The position numbers were made by a program, and so were the translations under genes. The notes under the pieces were generated by a model. It did not search any database. It saw only the letters and a list, made by a program, of their open reading frames with translations, and had not been told where the DNA came from. From Brienomyrus brachyistius (taxonomy: Eukaryota > Chordata > Actinopteri > Osteoglossiformes > Mormyridae), in the NCBI RefSeq assembly GCF_023856365.1, contig NC_064537.1:2645501-2709500 (forward strand): a stretch of DNA of 64,000 nucleotides. The letters run 5' to 3'. The stretch's first letter is position 1; each line of letters opens with the position of its first letter. Shown here one piece after another: positions 8,647 to 43,945 of the stretch.

Positions 8647-8717
8647 GCGCCGCTGGTGTAGTGGTATCATGCAAGATTCCCATTCTTGCGACCCGGGTTC
8701 GATTCCCGGGCGGCGCA
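8647..8717 (+). tRNA. tRNA-Gly(CCC)
   Basis: This is a complete 71-nt tRNA gene. The 7-bp acceptor stem GCGCCGC/GCGGCGC pairs perfectly and the discriminator base is A. The D-arm carries the A box (TGGTGTAGTGG). The anticodon stem CAAGA/TCTTG encloses the loop TTCCCAT, giving anticodon CCC at 8679-8681. The T-arm contains the B box GGGTTCGATTCCC. There is no intron and no encoded CCA, as expected in a eukaryote. A run of five T at 8723-8727 serves as the RNA polymerase III terminator. It reads glycine codon GGG and, as I remember it, is identical or nearly so to human tRNA-Gly-CCC. It stands alone, 455 bp upstream of the FBXW10 start codon. Confidence 0.97.
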
Positions 8718-8722
8718 CTGCG

Positions 8723-9171: not shown

Positions 9172-9690
9172 ATGAACCTTTTTGGAGCAGAGGAAGCGTG
9201 CGAGCCCAGCATGGGTTCGGCTCCCCGGCTGCACTGCAGAAGCGGCGAGCCAGGAGTGAGGGTGTGCGGGTGTCGGCTCTGCATCCTCGGGTCCAGACTC
9301 TCCAGCACAGCGGAGTGGTTTCTGCGGGCCGGGGACGCGCCGAAGAGGCGCTTTCTCACTGGTTTACTTCTTCGCTGTCAGAGCCTGGATATTGTGCGAA
9401 ACGTCGCACAGCTGTTACAGGTAACTCTGGGCAAAGACTTTACCTACGCCAGGTGCCAGCAAAGGCCGGCTCCGTCGGCGGACCTAGACGCTTGGAGTTC
9501 GGACCCAAGCGAAGTACTCAGCGGGGAAATCAGGGAAACCTGGAAGTGGTTCAGCTGCAGCTCAAACTGGACCAAAGCGAATTACGTTTTGGGAGTTTTC
9601 CCTCTCTGCGATGTCAGTCTTCTTCACGTTCTGGGAAATCTTACTCGGGCGCTTCTGGCAGGGCAAAGTCGAACTTTTCTCCATCATAAC
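9172..9690 (+). CDS. FBXW10: FBXW10 exon 1
   Basis: Encodes residues 1-173, from an ATG with G at -3. It contains the Cys-rich start, AEWFLRAGDAPKRRFL and SSNWTKANYVLG, which align with human FBXW10. The donor is CATAAC|GTAAGT at 9690/9691, phase 0. Intron 1 (9691-9786) is 96 nt and stop-free, so the frame stays open through it. Confidence 0.88.
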
Positions 9691-12600
9691 GTAAGTAAGT
9701 GGCGACGAACGACGCACATCTCTGTGTTTTCTTTGTCACGTCCCCAAAACCATACATTAGTACACATTTTCTGTTTGACAGTGCAGATGCAACCATACAT
9801 TTCAGACACGAGACAAAGACCCTGCCTTTTGACTCCTTTATCCCGTGTAGTTGTAGACAACCTTGAGGACCACGCTACTTCCATCCCAGAATCACATCAT
9901 TCCTTCTACTCGGATGAACACAAAGGGCTTGACCTACTCATCCGTACCAGTTCCAACTTTGCACCACTGGAGTATGCCTGGGACCTGGAACAGCAAATAG
10001 ATTTCGCGCCAAATCCTGGTATGATGGAGGAAGCGCATTTGCATAACCGGAAATTTAATAATGTCTATAACCGATACCGTGCGTCTCGCTCAGCAGGGAC
10101 CGATGCCCTGAAGGAGGCGTCCCAGTCAGTCTCGGCGGTTCGGAGGCGTGATTGGAGCCAGGATGGCGATGGGAACTCTCTGTATTCCCCAGACAGCGCG
10201 CGCACGGCGTTCCTCAGGGCCTCGGAGCTGCTGTCTGGAGTCAGTCGCTACACGGATTTTATCCGTCGGCTGCCGGTGCACCTGGCCAAAAGGATTTTAG
10301 GTAAGAAAGTCCTGAGAAGGGCAGGACAGCGTTTAATGCGTACTGCTCAGTCTCTGGAAGGAGCTGCCGTGACAGGAAAATGGCCTCATTAACCTAGGAG
10401 AATTTGGTTTCTTCAGCTCCGTTTTATTAAAGCGGCAATAGGAATGCAGGAGACCTACAAGAGTAGGATGAAGTGCACGTTTTTGTTGCTCACATATCTT
10501 CACTGGAGGCTGCCACTAAATGGATGCTTCTGACATTAGTGTTTACCAACAGCACGTAGTATCGTCTGGTCCATTCTTTTCTAAGGATACTTTCGCTAAA
10601 AGGAAACTTAACCAATTTTCACAGTATCATATTAACTTAATTGTAGGTGCCTTCCTGGCTTTATAAACGTTACCAGGGAAACGCCGAATGACGCTTTGAA
10701 TATGAGGCTCGTGGCATACGGTGCATGACGTTCTTCAAACAAGAAGAGCAATCTGAATCTAAGCTGTGGAATGTCACCCTGCATGTGGCTGACACAACGC
10801 AGCCAACCACTTAAAGTAACTGGCGTCATTACATGCGTTTTGCCGTTTTTTTTTAATTGTGAAACTGGAAACTGGCCTTTAATTTAATTTTAAGTGGCAT
10901 TAACAGGTATTAAAACGTCTTAAATGTAGCTTCCCTAAATCTGCAGATACCCTGCAGTGGTGCTTATCCACAGTTTAGATTTAGACCCCATCAACTTTAC
11001 GTACTTTCCTGGCCTGCAGCTGCTCATCTCCACCTCCCTGGGAAGGATAAGCACTTGTGCAGAGTGTGTATGCTCATACGGACTGTGTGTGTGCTCGTGT
11101 GTGTTCCAGCACTCTTGGACGAGCCCTCACTCTGCAGCTGCTTGTTTGTGTGCCGCCACTGGCATTATCTGGCTGAAGAGGTGCAGGTGGAGTCCACAGT
11201 CAGGCGGAAGATGGAGAATCTAGCGGTAACCATGCAGGTGCTCACACACCACAAGTTGGACTCCTCTGGCCTCTTTCTTTGGACACTAATAATTACAGAT
11301 AGTTCAGTAATAACATGTATAATTATGTAATGTCATTGTTGTCAAAAGGACTGGAAATATATAAAAATGGGCAATTGGGAAAACTGGAGGAGATGACTTT
11401 GGAATTGAAACCTGCCATTATGATGACATCGTATACCTTGTTCTAATGAAAAATATTAGCTTGATTCCTATTTATAATTAGAAGACAAGTTTCACAGTGT
11501 TTATCTGCCATCCCCTGCTGGATGAGCGTGTTGATGGGCTCCCCCTGCTGGATGAGCGTGTTAATGGGCGCCCCCTGCTGGATGAGCGTGTTGATGCGTG
11601 CCCCCTGCTGGATGATCATGTTAATGGGCGCCCCCTGCTGGATGAGCGTGTTGATGCGTGCCCCCTCCTGGATGAGTGTGTTGATGCGTGCCCCCTCCTG
11701 GATGAGTGTGTTGATGCGTGCCCCCTCCTGGATGAGTGTGTTGATGCGTGCCCCCTCCTGGATGAGTGTGTTGATGCGTGCCCCCTGCTGGATGATCATG
11801 TTAATGGGCGCCCCCTGCTGGATGAGCGTGTTGATGCGTGCCCCCTGCTGGATGAAGGTGTTGATGCGTGCCCCCTGCTGGATGATCATGTTAATGGGTG
11901 CCCCCTGCTGGATGATCATGTTAATGGGCGCCCCCTGCTGGATCATCATGTTAATGGGCGCCCCCCTGCTGGATGATCATGTCTCCTCAGGCCAATTTCT
12001 GCTCAGGGCCCAATCCAGTCTATGCCAGAATTCGGGAGGTTCTGGTTCCCGTCATGGAGGAGGAAGAGCAGCTGCAGACCAGAGAGTGTGTTTCCAGAAC
12101 CAGAACGGTAAAGTTGGACATTTTCACAGCCTTCTCCTTAGCAACATGTGGTGTTTTAGCCACTCATTTTAATTCACAGTGGGCGACAGACAGTATGTGT
12201 AATTATATTATTTTGATTTCACTGAAATCCTGATATAACTGGATAAATGTCGGTCATTTAAAGGAGTACTAGTACTTAATTTGGTTATATTGTGGGTTAA
12301 ATGTAACACAAAAATGTGAGTAATGAATCAACGACATAATACATTTATCCAAAGCAACCTACAGTTACAACCTAGTTGTGCTCTCTGGGATTCAAACCCA
12401 TAACCTTCATATTGTTAGCCTGTTGAGATACTTGCTGAACTACATATCTCATGACTGACCTTGATTACCCGATTACCCGTTTTTTAGGTCAGTTTTGAAT
12501 TTAGAGAGGATCTGATTGTGATCATGGTTCCTCTCAGACCTCGGCTCTGTTTCTGAAGGAGCGGAGCTTCACCATGAAGATGGTGCCCTGCTTCACCACA

Positions 12601-13675
12601 ACCCCGCGTGTCCCACTCTGTCTCCCCAGGGTACAGCCTTCGAGTCGGTCTATGCTGGGGTTGCGACCAGGGCACTGCAGATGGAGGAGAGGAACGTCTA
12701 CTGTGGCGTGTTCAGCGTCACTGTGCTGTCTGAGCAGTTGGGGTGGGGGTCAGAGCCATGGGGAGTGGGTGGTGTCATCCTTCAGGTAGTTGAGGCGGGT
12801 CTGGCTGTTGTAAATCCCTACTCTGTGCTTGGGTTCAGGGACGACCCTCTGCGAGTGGTGCATTTCTGTGGAGGGAACCTGGTGGCCATGGGTTCGAGGG
12901 ACAAGGCAGTGCGGCTGTTGGACACGAAGACAGTGAAGCCAGTGATGCGCCCCCTGTTGGGTCACACGGGGAGTGTCCGCGTCGTGCTGCTGAGTGAGGA
13001 GCGGGGACTCGTCCTCAGTGCGGGCTGCGACCTCACGATCAGGTCCGGACAGCTCCTCTCCTCCACACACGGCAGTGCTTAACGGTTCCGGAAAAGCCTT
13101 TCTAGCAGTGGGTTTACTGTGGATTACACGGGAGTGAGATTTTTATAGTCCATCAGCTGACTGGCTAATTTTATGAATCATTTTGGGGTTTTCAAAGGTG
13201 CAACAGCGAAGCTCAATATATATCGTTCACCTCTTCTCTCACTGTACAGTGACCCTGTCACTGAGATGCCGTACAGATCACAGAGCGTTTCGCACAGCTT
13301 ATGGCAGCTTTCCAGTGGAAATTTTGTGAGCCGTATCTGTGCCGACGTGCCCTGCAGGGCCAACAGATTGATCTCAGTGATCTGCAGTGATATGCAGTGA
13401 TCTGCATCGAAATGCATGTATTATCTGAAGGAAAAAATGGCATATTCCATATATTATTTATTAGTAGCAGTATTGCACATCGTGATGTATTAATGCATTC
13501 CCGATAATTCAGAACTTGAAAGTTCCCAACCTACTTAAAAAAGTACCGTAGAACAGCTGAATGTAATGGATTTGTTATTTATACAAGCAAGTGCTAATTC
13601 TGCTAGCATTTGATACTTGCATGACATGGTGATTCTCATAGATGTGCTAGCAGACATTAGCAGACAGTAAAATAA

Positions 13676-13711
<36 letters not shown>

Positions 13712-16600
13712 TGCACATAGTAAATCATGATGTACTCTGTGTGATGGCCTTTACTGAGCCGGCCCTTCTGCAGTGGAAACCTGAAGTGAGCTGGAACCGC
13801 GTTGTAACCATGTTGTAACCGCACTGTAACTCGTCTCTGTTCCCGGTATGGCTCAGGTACCAGATAATTCCTGTACACCAGTGGAAAAATGCCATTAGAG
13901 TCGTCAGACAGAAGCCCACCTTCAGTGCAGTACCTCTGTAAGCCTGCAGGGTGGCTGCTGTGGGCCCAAGTACTAGAATTACGACATTTTATGATGTAGG
14001 AAACCATTGAGTGAAAATGTCAGGGAGCAGGCTGCTCTTTTACCTCTCTATCTGCAGCGAGATAAAGTTTAACAAAGACATGATCATGAGATCTGCTTCC
14101 TGTGTGTCTGTTCTCACTTCCTGTGAGAGGACAGAGACCCCAGTGCAGTGGTCATTCTGGGATGTCTGTGCCACGTGTCCCATTCAGTGTCTGTCATAGC
14201 GAGGCATGTGGCATAACGTGGCGTGAGATAGGTTCATTCTGAAGATCCAGTGGGATCCAGTTGTCTAGCACATATACTGTACAGATGAGGGCCTGGAATT
14301 CACATTCCCCCCCCCCCCCCCCGCTCAGGTGCTGGAGCCTGCAGACTGGGCTGTGCATGAAGGTGTACTTTGGTCACACTGGCACCGTAAACTGCCTGGA
14401 TCTGCAAGAAGACCTGCTGGTTTCTGGGGCCAAGGACTGCAAGGTGAAAGGTCAGAGTCGCTCGGCGTCAGCAGTGTGACAGTGTTCTTCTTCAGGTGAC
14501 AGTGGGGGGCGTCAGCAGTGTGACAGTGTTCTTCTTCAGGTGACAGTGGGGGGCGTCAGCAGTGTGACAGTGTTCTTCAGGTGACAGTGGGGGGCGTCAG
14601 CAGTGTGACAGTGTTCTTCTTCTGGTGACAGTGGGGGGCGTCAGCAGTGTGACAGTGTTCTTCTTCTGGTGCCAGTGTGGAACCTTCACACTGGAAAGTG
14701 TTACAAAAAGCTGAAGTTCCATCATGACAAGCCCATCCTGTGCGTGAAGATCCAGAAGAACCTGGTGCTGAGTGGCTGTGATCAGGGTCTGCTGAAGGTG
14801 GGGGACCTGGAGACAGCCACGATCCTCCGGGTGAGTGCCTCCTCTTGCCTCCTCCCGCGTTCCTCACTCAGCTGGCGGACTGACGGCAATCTCCCCCCCT
14901 AAATCCTTGGCTTTCTGTCCCTCGGCAGGCCATCGCTGCCCACGAGGGCCCTCTCAGATGCCTCTTCTGTGACCCATGGCACATCCTGTCCGGGGGTGGC
15001 GACGGACTGGTGAGGGCTTGGAGCACCAGCTGCGGGTTCGAGGGCAGCCTGATGACCTTCCGGCATCCTGCGTGAGTGGGGGTGGGGCCGGGATTCTACT
15101 TCTGCTTGGGTATGGGCTCTCTGCTCGCCGCCTGGGACGTCACGGTGACTGTGAGGCTGTTCCTCAGGGAGGTGCTGAGCCTGGCATTCCTCTTCCTGCG
15201 TGTGATCACTGGCTGTGGCGACGGTAAGATCCGCATCTTCAGCTTCCTGTCGGGGGAGTGCCTGAGGGTGATCAGGGCTGGCAGGCAGCAGATCCCAGTG
15301 CGCTCCCTGCATGCGCACCCAGACAAGTAAGTGTCCCCCACCCCCCCCGCTTCGCTTTGCTCCATGCCTTGTCTTTATGTCTAGTCCCTCCCCTTGATAT
15401 TACCATGGGGCTCGAGGTCTGTCGTGTTCCCTCTGCAGAATCGTTGTGAACACCAGCGCCACCTTGGTGCTGCTGAGGTTCGGCACGGTTCACTGGAACT
15501 ACACTGCAGCAGTGACCTTGCCAGACGGCCCGGAGGCATCCTGGAGGCCCGCAGTGCAGGAGGATCCACACACCTTGGCGGGCACTTTCCGCCGCACCCG
15601 CCCCTGGGAGGGTAGTAATGCGGCCAGAAGGGCGGCGCCACCTGCTCTGAGCGGTCGGCAGGTGCAAGGTATGATCCATGAGTCCCTGCAGCGTTTCAGC
15701 TACCAGGTGGGTGTCCTGGTGCCTAAAAAGTCTGAAAATCATTTGATCGGCAGGAGACATATTTGGGGCCCAGACGGAGTCCCCCAGTGAGGCCAGGAGA
15801 GAGAATCAGGCTTATTGCACCCAACTGCTGCTCAGGAGGCCATGGGGAGGATTGGGGTCAGGCAGCCCTGCGGGGGGCAGCCTCACAAGGGATGCTGACA
15901 CTGCTGGATTTGGTAAGTCAGTGCGGAGGGTTCTTCAGTGAAGTGGGGAATCTGTAGTGAGGATGTCTGCCTGTCTCCCCTCACCTCCACAGCAAAGAAG
16001 TGGTACAGGCCAGTGAGGAGTGTCCCATCTGGTGGTAAGAGGGCTGTCGTACAGGCGGCAAAGATCTCCCAGCATTCTCAGCGGCCCGAGCCACAGGCCC
16101 AAAACATGGACATGTGGGAATCTCCACCCACTTTTTCCAGGAAGAACCTTGTGGTCAAATCCTCATTGCCACAGAAACTGTGCTTACCAGCGCCCCCTGC
16201 AGGGATGGGCATTGGAATGAGCCAGACCGAAATCCTGCAGCTCACCTGGACCCAGATCCCCACACACAGCGGTGCATCTACTCTGGTACCCCCCACCTCA
16301 AGGAAGGTGGGGCTTCCCCAACGACGCCAAACCGCACGCCAAGCCCCTCCATCCCCCCACAACCACCCCAACACACATGGAGCAGGTGGCCCAGCCCCCG
16401 CGTGGGGTTCCAGCTGCCTGATGGCACGGAGCCCCCACCCCAGCGTGGTCCCACCCACTAGACCCCTTCTGACCCCTTCCGCCTATCCACAGCCACACAG
16501 CTGGCGGAGGAGCAGGGGCTGTGGGTGCGAGCCCAGCGGGAGTAGGAGGTCCTCGGGACGAGGCGGGGCAGCACACAGTGGTGGGGAGCCTGAGCAGTGA
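9172..16600 (+). CDS. FBXW10: FBXW10, F-box and WD-repeat protein (whole gene, 14 exons)
   Basis: This is a putative substrate-recognition subunit of an SCF (SKP1-CUL1-F-box) ubiquitin ligase: the F-box would bind SKP1 and the WD propeller the substrate. Exons: 9172-9690, 9787-10300, 11110-11237, 11991-12107, 12538-12582, 12630-12742, 12839-13042, 14329-14450, 14676-14830, 14929-15071, 15168-15326, 15439-15710, 15754-15912, 15993-16600. All phases agree and give 3258 nt (1085 aa), close to human FBXW10 (about 1050). Conserved blocks shared with the human protein include EWF...RRFL and WTKANY (residues 45-155), the F-box LPVHLAKRILALLDE (about 333-372), EERNVYCG (about 460), and six or more WD repeats from about 480 to 720. 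Weakest points are exon 5, the exon 12/13 junction and the exon 14 end. The gene lies head to head with ARHGAP44. Confidence 0.9.
9787..10300 (+). CDS. FBXW10: FBXW10 exon 2 (linker and F-box start)
   Basis: Begins after the acceptor GTGCAG|ATGCAA and encodes a poorly conserved linker, then SGVSRYTDFIRRLPVHLAKR, the start of the F-box (human has SKYRDFIRYLPIHLSKY). It ends at TTTTAG|GTAAGA in phase 1. The 5' limit could instead be 9782, but only 9787 keeps the frame. Confidence 0.85.
10301..11109 (+). other. FBXW10 intron 2
   Basis: An 809-nt intron with GT at 10301 and AG at 11108-11109. No repeat or other feature is recognised in it. Confidence 0.75.
11110..11237 (+). CDS. FBXW10: FBXW10 exon 3 (F-box end)
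   Basis: Acceptor GTTCCAG|CACTC and donor ATGCAG|GTGCTC. It continues the F-box as ALLDEPSLCSCLFVCRHWHY and then LAEEVQVES. The pattern Leu-Leu-Asp, then Cys-x-Val-Cys-x-x-Trp is typical of F-boxes. It ends in phase 0. Confidence 0.88.
11513..11980. repeat. 30-bp minisatellite in FBXW10 intron 3, about 16 units, each with a CTCF-like core
   Basis: The unit is exactly 30 bp: CCCCCTGCTGGATGAGCGTG then TTGATGCGTG, with variants. On the minus strand the unit reads CCAGCAGGGGGCGC or CCAGCAGGGGGCAC in nine units. Both fit the CTCF core consensus CCASYAGRKGGCRS at all 14 positions. Four more units read CCAGGAGGGGGCAC (13 of 14). The array runs to within 10 bp of the exon 4 acceptor at 11990. Its ORFs in several frames on both strands follow from the period being a multiple of three and are not evidence of coding. 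Confidence 0.95.
11991..12107 (+). CDS. FBXW10: FBXW10 exon 4
   Basis: The acceptor is GTCTCCTCAG|GCC and the donor AGAACG|GTAAAG, phase 0 on both sides. It encodes ANFCSGPNPVYARIREVLVP, which aligns with human GSYTRGIDPNYANKVSIPVP, then an acidic stretch MEEEEQ. Confidence 0.85.
12330..12455 (-). mobile_element. tRNA-derived SINE fragment
   Basis: Read on the minus strand there is an A-box-like ATGTAGTTCAGCAAGT, a B-box-like GGTTATGGGTTTGAATCCC, then a tail ending GTTGCTTTGGATAAATG. That tail is the typical 3' end of many fish SINEs. The copy is short and lies in FBXW10 intron 4. Confidence 0.7.
12538..12582 (+). CDS. FBXW10: FBXW10 exon 5 (micro-exon, tentative)
   Basis: A 45-nt exon after CCTCTCAG|ACC, ending ATG|GTGCCC, encoding TSALFLKERSFTMKM. 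Phase 0 on both sides. It implies a 47-nt intron (12583-12629). The downstream frame is closed upstream of 12522, so some splice is needed here. This exon is the least certain of the N-terminal half. Confidence 0.5.
12630..12742 (+). CDS. FBXW10: FBXW10 exon 6
   Basis: After the strong acceptor CTGTCTCCCCAG|GGT it encodes GTAFESVYAGVATRALQMEE then RNVYCGVFSVTVLSEQL. The EERNVYCG block matches human EERNVFCG. It ends TTGGG|GTGGGG in phase 2. Intron 6 (12743-12838) is 96 nt, in frame and stop-free. Confidence 0.85.
12839..13042 (+). CDS. FBXW10: FBXW10 exon 7 (first WD repeats)
   Basis: Encodes DDPLRVVHFCGGNLVAMGSR and then LLGHTGSVRVVLLSEERGLV and LSAGCDLTIR, matching the first two human WD repeats. 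It ends ATCAG|GTCCGG in phase 2. Confidence 0.92.
13043..14328 (+). other. FBXW10 intron 7
   Basis: A 1286-nt intron. It contains an (AAT)n microsatellite at 13670-13711 and ends with a 16-nt poly-C run (14307-14322) as its polypyrimidine tract, followed by GCTCAG. No gene is seen inside it. Confidence 0.8.
13670..13711. repeat. (AAT)n microsatellite
   Basis: About 12 AAT/TAA units in FBXW10 intron 7. Confidence 0.95.
14329..14450 (+). CDS. FBXW10: FBXW10 exon 8 (WD repeats 2-3)
   Basis: Encodes the end of one WD repeat (CWSLQTG) and most of the next: YFGHTGTVNCLDL, then LLVSGAKDCKVK. I chose the donor AAAG|GTCAGA at 14450 over AAG|GTGAAA at 14443, because only the former joins exon 9 in frame and gives DCKVKVWNLHTG as in human DCQVKVWDVDTG. 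Confidence 0.88.
14465..14675. repeat. 44-bp minisatellite, 5 copies, abutting the exon 9 acceptor
   Basis: Units begin GCGTCAGCAGTGTGACAGTG at 14465, 14509, 14553, 14594 and 14638; the third unit lacks 3 nt. Each unit includes a pyrimidine tract plus AG (TTCTTCTTCAGGTGACAG). The last unit ends at the presumed functional acceptor GGTGCCAG|TGTGG. The 3' splice-site region of exon 9 has thus been tandemly duplicated. Confidence 0.9.
14676..14830 (+). CDS. FBXW10: FBXW10 exon 9 (WD repeats 3-4)
   Basis: Encodes VWNLHTGKCYKKLKFHHDKP and then LVLSGCDQGLLKVGDLETAT. The codon at 14801-14803 is GGG (Gly, about residue 630), where WD repeats normally have Trp (KVWDL). TGG to GGG is one base change. 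The donor is CTCCGG|GTGAGT, phase 0. Confidence 0.9.
14929..15071 (+). CDS. FBXW10: FBXW10 exon 10 (WD repeat 5)
   Basis: Encodes AHEGPLRCLFCDPWHILSGG and then DGLVRAWST and LMTFRHP, aligning with human GHEGAVKCLFFDQWHLLSGS. The acceptor is CTCGGCAG|GCC and the donor CCTGC|GTGAGT, phase 2. Confidence 0.92.
15168..15326 (+). CDS. FBXW10: FBXW10 exon 11 (WD repeat 6)
   Basis: Encodes EVLSLAFLFLRVITGCGDGK and then IRIFSFLSGECLRVIRAG. Human has EVLDVSLLFLRVISACADGK. The donor is GACAA|GTAAGT, phase 2. Confidence 0.93.
15439..15710 (+). CDS. FBXW10: FBXW10 exon 12
   Basis: Starts after CTCTGCAG and encodes KIVVNTSATLVLLRFGTVHW, matching human MVVNTESNVLMFQFEHIKW. A variable, Pro/Arg-rich segment follows. 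The 3' end is either 15706 (CAG|GTGGGT) or 15710 (GTGG|GTGTCC). I prefer 15710 because its phase leads into the open frame of exons 13-14. Confidence 0.75.
15754..15912 (+). CDS. FBXW10: FBXW10 exon 13 (tentative)
   Basis: Lies between GATCGGCAG|GAG and the strong donor GATTTG|GTAAGT. In the preferred frame it encodes GAQTESPSEARRENQAYC and a Gly-rich stretch. It implies an intron of only 43-47 nt before it. Conservation of this C-terminal region is low, so the frame choice rests on phase alone. Confidence 0.55.
15993..16600 (+). CDS. FBXW10: FBXW10 exon 14, C-terminal (tentative)
   Basis: After CACCTCCACAG it opens KKWYRPVRSVPSGGKRAVVQ and stays open for about 200 codons to a TGA at 16598-16600. 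The composition is rich in Pro, Ser and Gln, as in the disordered tail of the family. Further splicing inside it is possible. Confidence 0.5.
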
Positions 16601-17425: not shown

Positions 17426-17464
17426 ATGATTTAGGAATATTTGTCACTTCATATTTGATCATGA

Positions 17465-17480
17465 CCAGCAGGGGGCAGCA
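17465..17480 (+). promoter_or_regulatory. CTCF core motif, plus orientation
   Basis: CCAGCAGGGGGCAGCA fits the CTCF core CCASYAGRKGGCRSYR at all 16 positions. It lies about 860 bp past the FBXW10 stop and points toward a second, minus-strand motif at 17764-17777. Confidence 0.6.
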
Positions 17481-42164: not shown

Positions 42165-42845
42165 GACACTGGGGAGAGACCCTGGGGAGAGAGACTGAGG
42201 ATACATACTGAGGAGAGACACTGAGGAAAGACAATGAGGAGAGATACTGAGGAGATACTGGAGAGCGACCCTGGGGGGAGACCCTGGGGAGAGAGACTGA
42301 GGATACATACTGAGGAGAGACACTCAGGAAAGACAATGAGGAGAGATACTGAGGAGAGACACTGAGGAGAGACACTGAGGAGAGACAATGAGGAGAGACA
42401 CTGAGGATATATAGTGAGGAGAGACACTGAGGAGATACTGGAGAGCGACCCTGGGAGGAGACCCTGGGGGGAGACCCTGGGGAGAGAGACTGAGGATACA
42501 TACTGAGGAGAGACACTGAGGAAAGACAATGAGGAGAGATACTGAGGAGAGACACTGAGGAGAGACACTGAGGAGAGACAATGAGGAGAGATACTGAGGA
42601 GATACTGGAGAGCGACCCTGGGGAGAGAGACTGAGGATACATACTGAGGAGAGACACTGAGGAGAGACACTGAGGAGAGACACTGAGGAAAGACAATGAG
42701 GAGAGACACTGAGGAGAGACACTGAGGAGAGACAATGAGGAGAGATACTGAGGAGATACTGGAGAGCGACCCTGGGGAGAGAGACTGAGGAGAGACACTG
42801 AGGAGAGACAATGAGGAGAGATACTGAGGGGATACTGGGGTGAGA
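42165..42845. repeat. 12-bp minisatellite with higher-order structure
   Basis: The base unit is ACTGAGGAGAGA. It is grouped into larger blocks that repeat GATACTGGAGAGCGACCCTG and GAGACTGAGGATACATACTG. The 313-codon minus ORF over it is a consequence of the 12-bp period. Confidence 0.95.
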
Positions 42846-43945
42846 CATGATCACTGTCAGAGCCGTGCCACATTTCCCAAAAGAGAGACGCGTGGTGTGC
42901 TGGGCATGGCAGCCTGGCTTATCTGTGGGGTGCTAATAAAATGGCCCGGTTCTAGCCTGCAGCCCCTCTGTGCTTTTTCACAAGGCTCACTCGCTGAACC
43001 ACTGCTTCCTGAAAGAACGTTCATTAAAAGCATCAGCTGCAGGGCCGTATACAGGGGTGGGGCCACATGGGTAAAAGATATGATTGGCAAATTATAATTA
43101 TGAATTATGGTCCCTCCTATGCCCCCCACCTTAAAAATTCCAAGCGTTGCTCCCGATTAGCTGGTGGTGTCCATAGCCAATCATCTACCTTGCAATTTAA
43201 CACATTTATCCTCTCTCAAAGGTACAACAGAAAAGCGCCCTGGGGCTTGTGTCAGGTGACCTTGGAACCCTGCTCGTTATATGCTGCACACCGTCGCCAT
43301 GGCGCTGGCCACTTTTGCTCTCACAGCGCTGTGTTTGGCCCAGAGAGGTTCATCGTAATGCATTCTGAGCCATGACCTGGGCCTAATTGCTCCGGCGCTC
43401 TGCCTGCAGAGGAATGCGTTGGTCTGATCTCCCAGTACGGCGTTCAGACCAGAGCACTTGTCTGCCCGCCTCGGCATCTGGCGAGTGACAGATGTGGTTT
43501 GCCTGGTTACCACGGAGACAGCTGTTAATCTCCCTCAGGGTATCGACGTGGGGGGTGCAGGACGCATCAGCAGGGGTCACTGGGGGTCGAGTGGTTTCTG
43601 GAAACACCTCGGGGTCACAGGGAAGATTGTCCAAATTTAATCCCAGTGATGCATTTCTGTGACTCTTCTGTCCTGGGAAGGATCTTCAGGATGGCAACTG
43701 ATGGTCTGGAATGAAGGAAAAAGGCGCAAGAATCTCAGAGGACAGGGCCTGGATATGGGGGCATATCGGGCAGGGGGGTGTCCTTTGCCGGGGTTAGGGG
43801 ACAGGGCAGGGAGGGGCCATTTTTGAAAGACGAAAATAGAAATGTAAGGCGGGTACAGGTGATGAGGGTGAGTTATTCCAGGGCAGGTGTGGGATTTGGG
43901 AACAGGGACCAGAGGAAAAAGGACTTCAGGGGTCAGGTAAATCCG
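42846..43945. other. Non-coding, nothing recognised
   Basis: No exon or repeat is identified. Confidence 0.35.

What the first reader, a model, noticed from the sequence alone, without database searches (positions are those of the whole stretch)
11513..11980. Minisatellite made of tandem CTCF-like core motifs inside FBXW10
The 30-bp unit carries, on the minus strand, CCAGCAGGGGGCGC or CCAGCAGGGGGCAC. Nine units match the CTCF core CCASYAGRKGGCRS at 14 of 14 positions and four more at 13. All point the same way at an exact 30-bp spacing, in the intron of one of two divergent genes. An array of some 13 same-orientation CTCF cores in under 500 bp would be an unusually dense boundary, conceptually like the large CTCF repeat arrays on the mammalian X. 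Unit divergence is concentrated outside the core. Copy-number change would tune motif number.
Basis: partly seen in the sequence, partly recalled or inferred. Interest (0 to 1): 0.78.

Follow-up and report, generated by a model that had tools for sequence, protein, structure and literature searches.

The report
Intron minisatellite with CTCF-like repeat units
A 30-base sequence repeated about 16 times inside an intron carries in nearly every copy a good match to the recognition site of the genome-folding protein CTCF, and its last copy also seems placed to serve splicing; repeats of this kind are known, and whether CTCF binds this one is untested.

Summary
The array is real: 16 copies of a 30-bp unit at 11508-11982, one orientation, 30-bp steps (last step 31). 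Nine of 16 copies match CCASYAGRKGGCRS at 14/14, five at 13/14. The motif claim stands. An evolved dense boundary is not shown: core columns are not significantly less variable than linker columns (3 of 14 against 6 of 16, p=0.29), a site-weakening variant fills four identical copies, and no copy has the upstream finger 9-11 motif. CTCF minisatellites with ~30-bp units (mouse DXPas34; human simple repeats) are already described. Beyond the finding: the array takes 62% of intron 3 of an F-box/WD40 gene and ends 8 bases before the acceptor; the only YTNAY branch-point-like motif within 60 nt of that acceptor lies in the array. A second minisatellite abuts another acceptor of the gene. Verdict: intronic minisatellite with CTCF-grade units; occupancy untested.

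The parts
11508..11982 (.). 30-bp minisatellite, 16 units (TRF bounds 11512-11976; unit identity runs to 11982 by eye)
11506..11524 (-). CTCF-like site, unit 1, 13.6 bits
   Evidence: recalled JASPAR MA0139.1
11536..11554 (-). CTCF-like site, unit 2, 17.5 bits, 13/14 core
11566..11644 (-). CTCF-like sites, units 3-5, 17.7-20.3 bits, 14/14 cores
11656..11764 (-). CTCF-like sites, units 6-9, four identical 30-mers, 14.5 bits each, 13/14 cores (C to G at core position 5)
11776..11944 (-). CTCF-like sites, units 10-15, 17.7-20.3 bits, 14/14 cores
11957..11975 (-). unit 16, site broken by one extra base, 7.2 bits
11951..11955 (+). branch-point-like TTAAT (YTNAY), A at 11954, 36 nt before the acceptor G; the nearest of 15 such motifs in the array, one after each of units 1-15
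11857..11988 (+). 132-nt stretch without AG before the acceptor, spanning the last units
   Evidence: AG positions 11856 and 11989
11989..11990 (+). acceptor AG of intron 3
11238..11990 (+). intron 3 of the F-box/WD40 gene, 753 bp
11110..11237 (+). exon 3 (part of the F-box)
11991..12107 (+). exon 4
   Evidence: phase-consistent with exons 3 and 5
14464..14677 (.). second minisatellite (period 44), fills most of intron 14451-14675 and crosses its acceptor by 2 bases

Best explanation
It is an intronic minisatellite, one of 27 larger tandem arrays in the window. It grew at the 3' end of intron 3 of a plus-strand F-box/WD40 (FBXW10-like) gene. Its unit (branch-point-like TGTTRAT, then a C-rich tract, then TGG) reads as a CTCF core on the other strand. 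Shown: the array, the matrix-grade cores, the single orientation, the near-fixed spacing, the position 8 bases from a phase-consistent acceptor, and that no other YTNAY motif lies within 60 nt of that acceptor. Inferred: slippage or unequal exchange spread the unit; CTCF can bind some units where chromatin allows, most likely every second one, so that it acts as one compact CTCF cluster rather than a 13-fold wall; and the last copy supplies the branch point of intron 3. Copy number is probably near-neutral, because internal copies are interchangeable and the acceptor keeps the last one.
For: Array and spacing. Matrix scores: 15 of 16 units at p<1e-5, best 20.3 of 26.1 bits. Decoy controls. Only this one of 27 larger arrays, and none of 16 small ones, has such sites. 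Core not significantly less variable than linker. Weak variant in four identical units 6-9. No upstream motif: best 4-5 of 10 in 16 of 16 units, random-flank mean 4.7. Gene model of 8 exons with GT-AG ends and consistent phases, F-box and WD40 by Pfam, WD40 part matches FBXW7 chains at 3.1e-48, after designed propellers at 6.6e-97. YTNAY motif at -36 inside the array and 132 nt without AG. Array ends lie within 15 nt of 2 of 7 acceptors of this gene; 195 of 63999 circular shifts do as well with 27 arrays, 559 of 63999 with all 43. CTCF occupancy of simple tandem repeats is documented in human cells (PMC5007689, section 6 read).
Against: No occupancy, RNA or population data. The CTCF matrix is recalled, not fetched. 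The strong match is unlikely by chance within one window (expectation about 0.01 arrays with >=4 hits), which leaves room for selection. Relatives could not be searched, so conservation is open. The position at the acceptor was noticed afterwards, so its p-values are post hoc. Branch points need not fit YTNAY.
Confidence: 0.6

Rival explanations
1. A working CTCF cluster: several CTCF molecules bind the array at once, all pointing one way, and stop cohesin arriving from one side, so that unit number sets boundary strength.
For: 15 of 16 units score p<1e-5 in one orientation. The strongest single site in the window (17462-17480, plus strand, 23.4 bits) points the opposite way about 5.5 kb downstream, a divergent pair of the sort I recall from domain borders. 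Clustered CTCF sites are enriched at TAD borders in mouse (PMC6945661, passages). None of the 16 cores has a CpG at core position 2, one of the two methylatable positions named in PMC6222495 (passages).
Against: No significant core constraint, weak variant in four units, no upstream motif of the kind needed for insulator activity at IL3 in PMC12885311 (passages). Motifs about 11 bp apart, against a 30-40-bp linker in the pairs shown in PMC4562119 (passages). Single CTCF-like words are about tenfold enriched in the rest of the window too (12 against a decoy mean of 1.1), so such sequence alone is weak evidence here.
Confidence: 0.2
2. A splicing module: the repeat is kept because each copy carries branch point plus C-rich tract, which makes the acceptor of intron 3 insensitive to loss or gain of copies.
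For: TGTTRAT is intact in units 1-15. The copy nearest the acceptor puts its A at -36, and the last 132 intron bases before the acceptor AG hold no AG. The last four units all lack the AG that 10 of 16 units carry; 0.008 by simple permutation. A GAGCGT-type last unit would place an AG at 11976-11977 and add 13 nt to exon 4 (worked out).
Against: One branch point is enough; neighbouring units share ancestry, so the permutation value overstates the case. The tract between branch point and AG is only 65% pyrimidine.
Confidence: 0.15
3. Pure chance: a neutral array whose unit resembles a CTCF core and is never bound.
For: There are 27 larger arrays in 64 kb; at 20 hits in 54000 array-matrix pairs about 156 arrays per Gb would carry >=4 hits to any given matrix of this kind by chance, so such arrays should exist somewhere in a genome like this.
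Against: In this window alone the expectation is about 0.01, and 0 of 5000 permuted matrices did as well on this array. Scores this high are usually bindable sequence (recalled).
Confidence: 0.2

Closest known systems
DXPas34 (Tsix, mouse X)
   Same: Minisatellite with 34-bp monomers, each with a CTCF site; TRF blocks of 34, 31 and 30 bp in mouse; copy number differs between vole species (PMC3149622, passages).
   Different: CpG-rich and part of X inactivation; here the chromosome is unknown, a CpG at core position 12 occurs in only 4 of 16 units, and the array sits at a splice acceptor of a coding gene. In one vole, DXPas34 lacks CTCF sites altogether.
Human simple tandem repeats bound by CTCF and BORIS
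   Same: Short tandem units whose CTCF signature is duplicated and staggered; the class has 171 repeats, mostly simple repeats (PMC5007689, section 6).
   Different: BORIS arose in early amniotes (PMC5973138, abstract start in listing); the host here is unnamed and, I guess, a fish, so BORIS may be absent. Binding is measured there, only predicted here.
2xCTS (paired CTCF sites)
   Same: Closely spaced CTCF motifs, in the set shown both on one strand (PMC4562119, passages).
   Different: Linker 30-40 bp in the pairs shown, 33-58 bp at TSP50; about 11 bp between 19-bp motifs here, so alternate units fit that geometry better than adjacent ones.
DXZ4 and the 1q23.3 tRNA VNTR
   Same: Tandem arrays bound by CTCF (PMC3491370, listing only; PMC4041453, passages).
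   Different: Units of 7.3 kb at 1q23.3 and kilobases at DXZ4 (recalled), against 30 bp.
Amphioxus 'mirages'
   Same: Minisatellites at intron-exon boundaries that do not stop regular splicing (PMC3087553, passages).
   Different: Those span the boundary. The second array here (14464-14677) does so by 2 bases; the reported array stops 8 bases short.

Membership tests
CTCF-site minisatellite (DXPas34 type) | Short tandem units with a CTCF motif each | tested here: met
   15 of 16 units p<1e-5 with a recalled matrix
CTCF-site minisatellite (DXPas34 type) | CTCF bound in vivo | not testable with these tools
   no ChIP data in reach
CTCF-site minisatellite (DXPas34 type) | Copy number varies between individuals or species | not testable with these tools
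   no second genome; the genome search unanswered
[quoted passage not shown]
   15 motifs at p<1e-5, 30 bp apart
2xCTS | Spacing of the described pairs (30-40-bp linker) and double occupancy | tested here: inconclusive
   about 11 bp between adjacent motifs, 41 bp between alternate ones; occupancy not testable
CTCF site with upstream motif | Sequence like CAGCTGTTCC a few bp upstream of the core | tested here: not met
   best 4-5 of 10 in 16 of 16 units at spacings of 2-10 bp, background mean 4.7
DXZ4-type macrosatellite | Kilobase units | tested here: not met
   unit is 30 bp
Mirage minisatellite | Repeat spans an intron-exon boundary | tested here: not met
   array identity ends at 11982, exon 4 begins at 11991; the second array crosses its acceptor by 2 bases

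The most novel reading that the evidence does not exclude
A two-strand minisatellite: on DNA each 30-bp unit is a CTCF core on one strand, and on the transcript of the other strand the same bases form branch point plus C-rich tract of an acceptor. CTCF bound over the array would slow polymerase exactly at the 3' splice site whose branch point the array provides, so that copy number would tune both cohesin stopping and inclusion of exon 4.
Probability: 0.06. Interest if true: 0.7.

Novelty: new member of a known kind. Interest (0 to 1): 0.36.

Why it matters
If bound, it would extend the DXPas34 kind of CTCF minisatellite to the intron of a coding gene, with a natural series of near-identical sites to ask how many closely packed CTCF cores count. 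If not bound, it is a clean example of how repeat expansion makes clusters of convincing but empty motifs. Either way, an acceptor whose likely branch point lies inside a minisatellite makes a testable link between copy number and splicing.

Tried and rejected
Dispersed origin of the unit: BLAST of doubled units against the window gave, outside the array, only short matches, best E 0.03 at 17456-17476; by eye the flanks of 13 other CTCF-like words share no sequence, so a transposon source is not supported here. Coding origin: the array is open in three frames, but in the frame of exon 4 it has a TAA that contains the branch-point-like A; rejected. Relatives: an exact 26-base piece of the unit has 0 matches in viral contigs, as expected; genome contigs was not scanned because it holds only bacteria and archaea. 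The protein search with exons 1-4 scored 7999 candidates, none at E<=0.001. Rfam at gathering threshold finds only a tRNA in the window. G-quadruplex or hairpin function: a three-unit stretch was folded on both strands without a shuffle control; not pursued. Literature: no paper on a minisatellite that provides a branch point appeared among the rows shown (15 of 41 and 8 of 18 papers); this is no proof of absence. Host species was not established by any search; 'fish' is my guess.

Rows dropped: the 27 'larger arrays' were merged by hand from 75 TRF rows; 16 small or short-period arrays were left out and looked at afterwards (none has a CTCF-like site; they raise the acceptor shift count from 195 to 559 of 63999).

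Full report
What is there. Positions 11508-11982 hold 16 head-to-tail copies of a 30-bp unit (TRF: 11512-11976, 15.5 copies, 90% matches). Anchors fall at 30-bp steps except the last, which is 31. On the minus strand, nine of 16 units match CCASYAGRKGGCRS at 14 of 14, five at 13, and two (units 1 and 16) less well.

Is the motif match real? Fifteen of 16 units reach p<1e-5 and ten p<1e-6; the best is 20.3 of 26.1 bits. Permuting the columns of the matrix 5000 times gave no matrix that scored as high on the array or hit it as often. Over 27 larger arrays and 2000 permuted matrices, 20 of 54000 pairs gave four or more hits (5 of them on this array), 5 gave ten or more (none on this array) and 1 reached 20.28 bits, on the array 42165-42847. 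By that rate one would expect about 0.01 arrays with four or more hits in a window like this, but about 156 per Gb at this array density. Permutation breaks the G-run of the motif, so the control is lenient. None of the other 26 larger arrays or 16 small ones has a site at p<1e-5. Outside arrays there are 12 such sites where permuted matrices give 1.1 on average and 5 at most in 200 trials, so single CTCF-like words are common in this sequence anyway.

Is the core under constraint? Among units 2-15, 3 of 14 core and 6 of 16 linker columns vary (p=0.29). Over the 30 possible 14-column windows the core is 5th to 6th lowest. Units 6-9 are identical and share a core change that costs about 3 bits. 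Homogenisation of the array explains this without selection on CTCF binding. The upstream motif bound by fingers 9-11, needed for insulator activity at IL3 in PMC12885311 (passages read), is absent: best match 4-5 of 10 in 16 of 16 units, random flanks 4.7. That paper also says only 13-15% of CTCF sites have it, so its absence does not argue against binding.

Geometry. In PMC4562119 (passages) the paired CTCF sites shown have a 30-40-bp linker. Here 19-bp motifs are about 11 bp apart, so alternate units (41-bp gap) resemble that geometry better than adjacent ones. Fingers 3-7 take 15 bp, finger 8 bridges about 5 bp and fingers 9-11 take 9 bp (PMC12885311), together about one unit, so full packing would be tight. 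I infer seven or eight molecules at once at most. This is inference.

Where it sits. I built a plus-strand gene model of eight exons (9172-15071) with GT-AG introns and consistent phases. Its product has an F-box (2.5e-6) and WD40 repeats (PF00400, 2.9e-16); the WD40 part matches designed propellers best (6.6e-97) and FBXW7 at 3.1e-48. The array takes 465 of the 753 bases of intron 3 and its identity ends 8 bases before exon 4. The YTNAY motif nearest the acceptor is TTAAT with its A at 11954, 36 nt before the acceptor G; the next are 66 and 96 nt away, also in the array. No AG occurs between 11857 and 11988. Ten of 16 units carry an AG in the linker, but none of the last four does (0.008 by simple permutation; units share ancestry, so this is only suggestive). 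A GAGCGT-type last unit would make an AG 13 nt upstream of the true acceptor and shift the frame.

A second case in the same gene. The 44-bp minisatellite 14464-14677 fills most of intron 14451-14675 and crosses its acceptor by 2 bases; the splice gives the WD40 sequence VKVWNLHTGKC. Array ends lie within 15 nt of 2 of the 7 acceptors in the model. With the 27 larger arrays 195 of 63999 circular shifts do as well, and 5 of the 9753 shifts that avoid exon overlap; random placement of three arrays in the introns gives 0.003. With all 43 arrays it is 559 of 63999. This was noticed after the fact. It recalls the amphioxus 'mirages' (PMC3087553, passages).

What is known. DXPas34 is a minisatellite with 34-bp monomers, each with a CTCF site, and by TRF also 31- and 30-bp blocks (PMC3149622, passages). 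In human cells 171 repeats, mostly simple tandem repeats, are bound by CTCF and BORIS, with a staggered signature (PMC5007689, section 6). Hence a CTCF minisatellite is a known kind. BORIS is an amniote paralogue (PMC5973138, abstract start in a listing), so in a fish only CTCF would be expected.

Verdict. I take it as an intronic minisatellite, probably near-neutral, whose unit is a bindable CTCF core and whose last copy probably provides the branch point of intron 3.

Noticed in passing
14464-14677: 44-bp minisatellite that fills most of an intron of the same gene and crosses its acceptor by 2 bases; three of its units carry CAGGTGACAG, like an acceptor plus donor.
   Followed up: partly
17462-17480: Strongest single CTCF-like site of the window (23.4 bits), plus strand, so it points away from the array.
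   Followed up: no
1-64000: 43 tandem arrays cover 9356 bases, about 15% of the window; 12 CTCF-like sites at p<1e-5 outside the larger arrays, about tenfold over permuted matrices.
   Followed up: partly
8647-8718: tRNA-Gly (anticodon CCC) about 450 bp upstream of the first modelled exon.
   Followed up: no
12943-12960: A near-CTCF word (CCAACAGGGGGCGC, 13/14, at 12947-12960) inside WD40 coding exon 5, part of an 85% match over 20 columns to the repeat unit, E 1.3.
   Followed up: no
11443-12172: The array is open in three of six frames, as 30 is a multiple of three; no sign of coding.
   Followed up: yes
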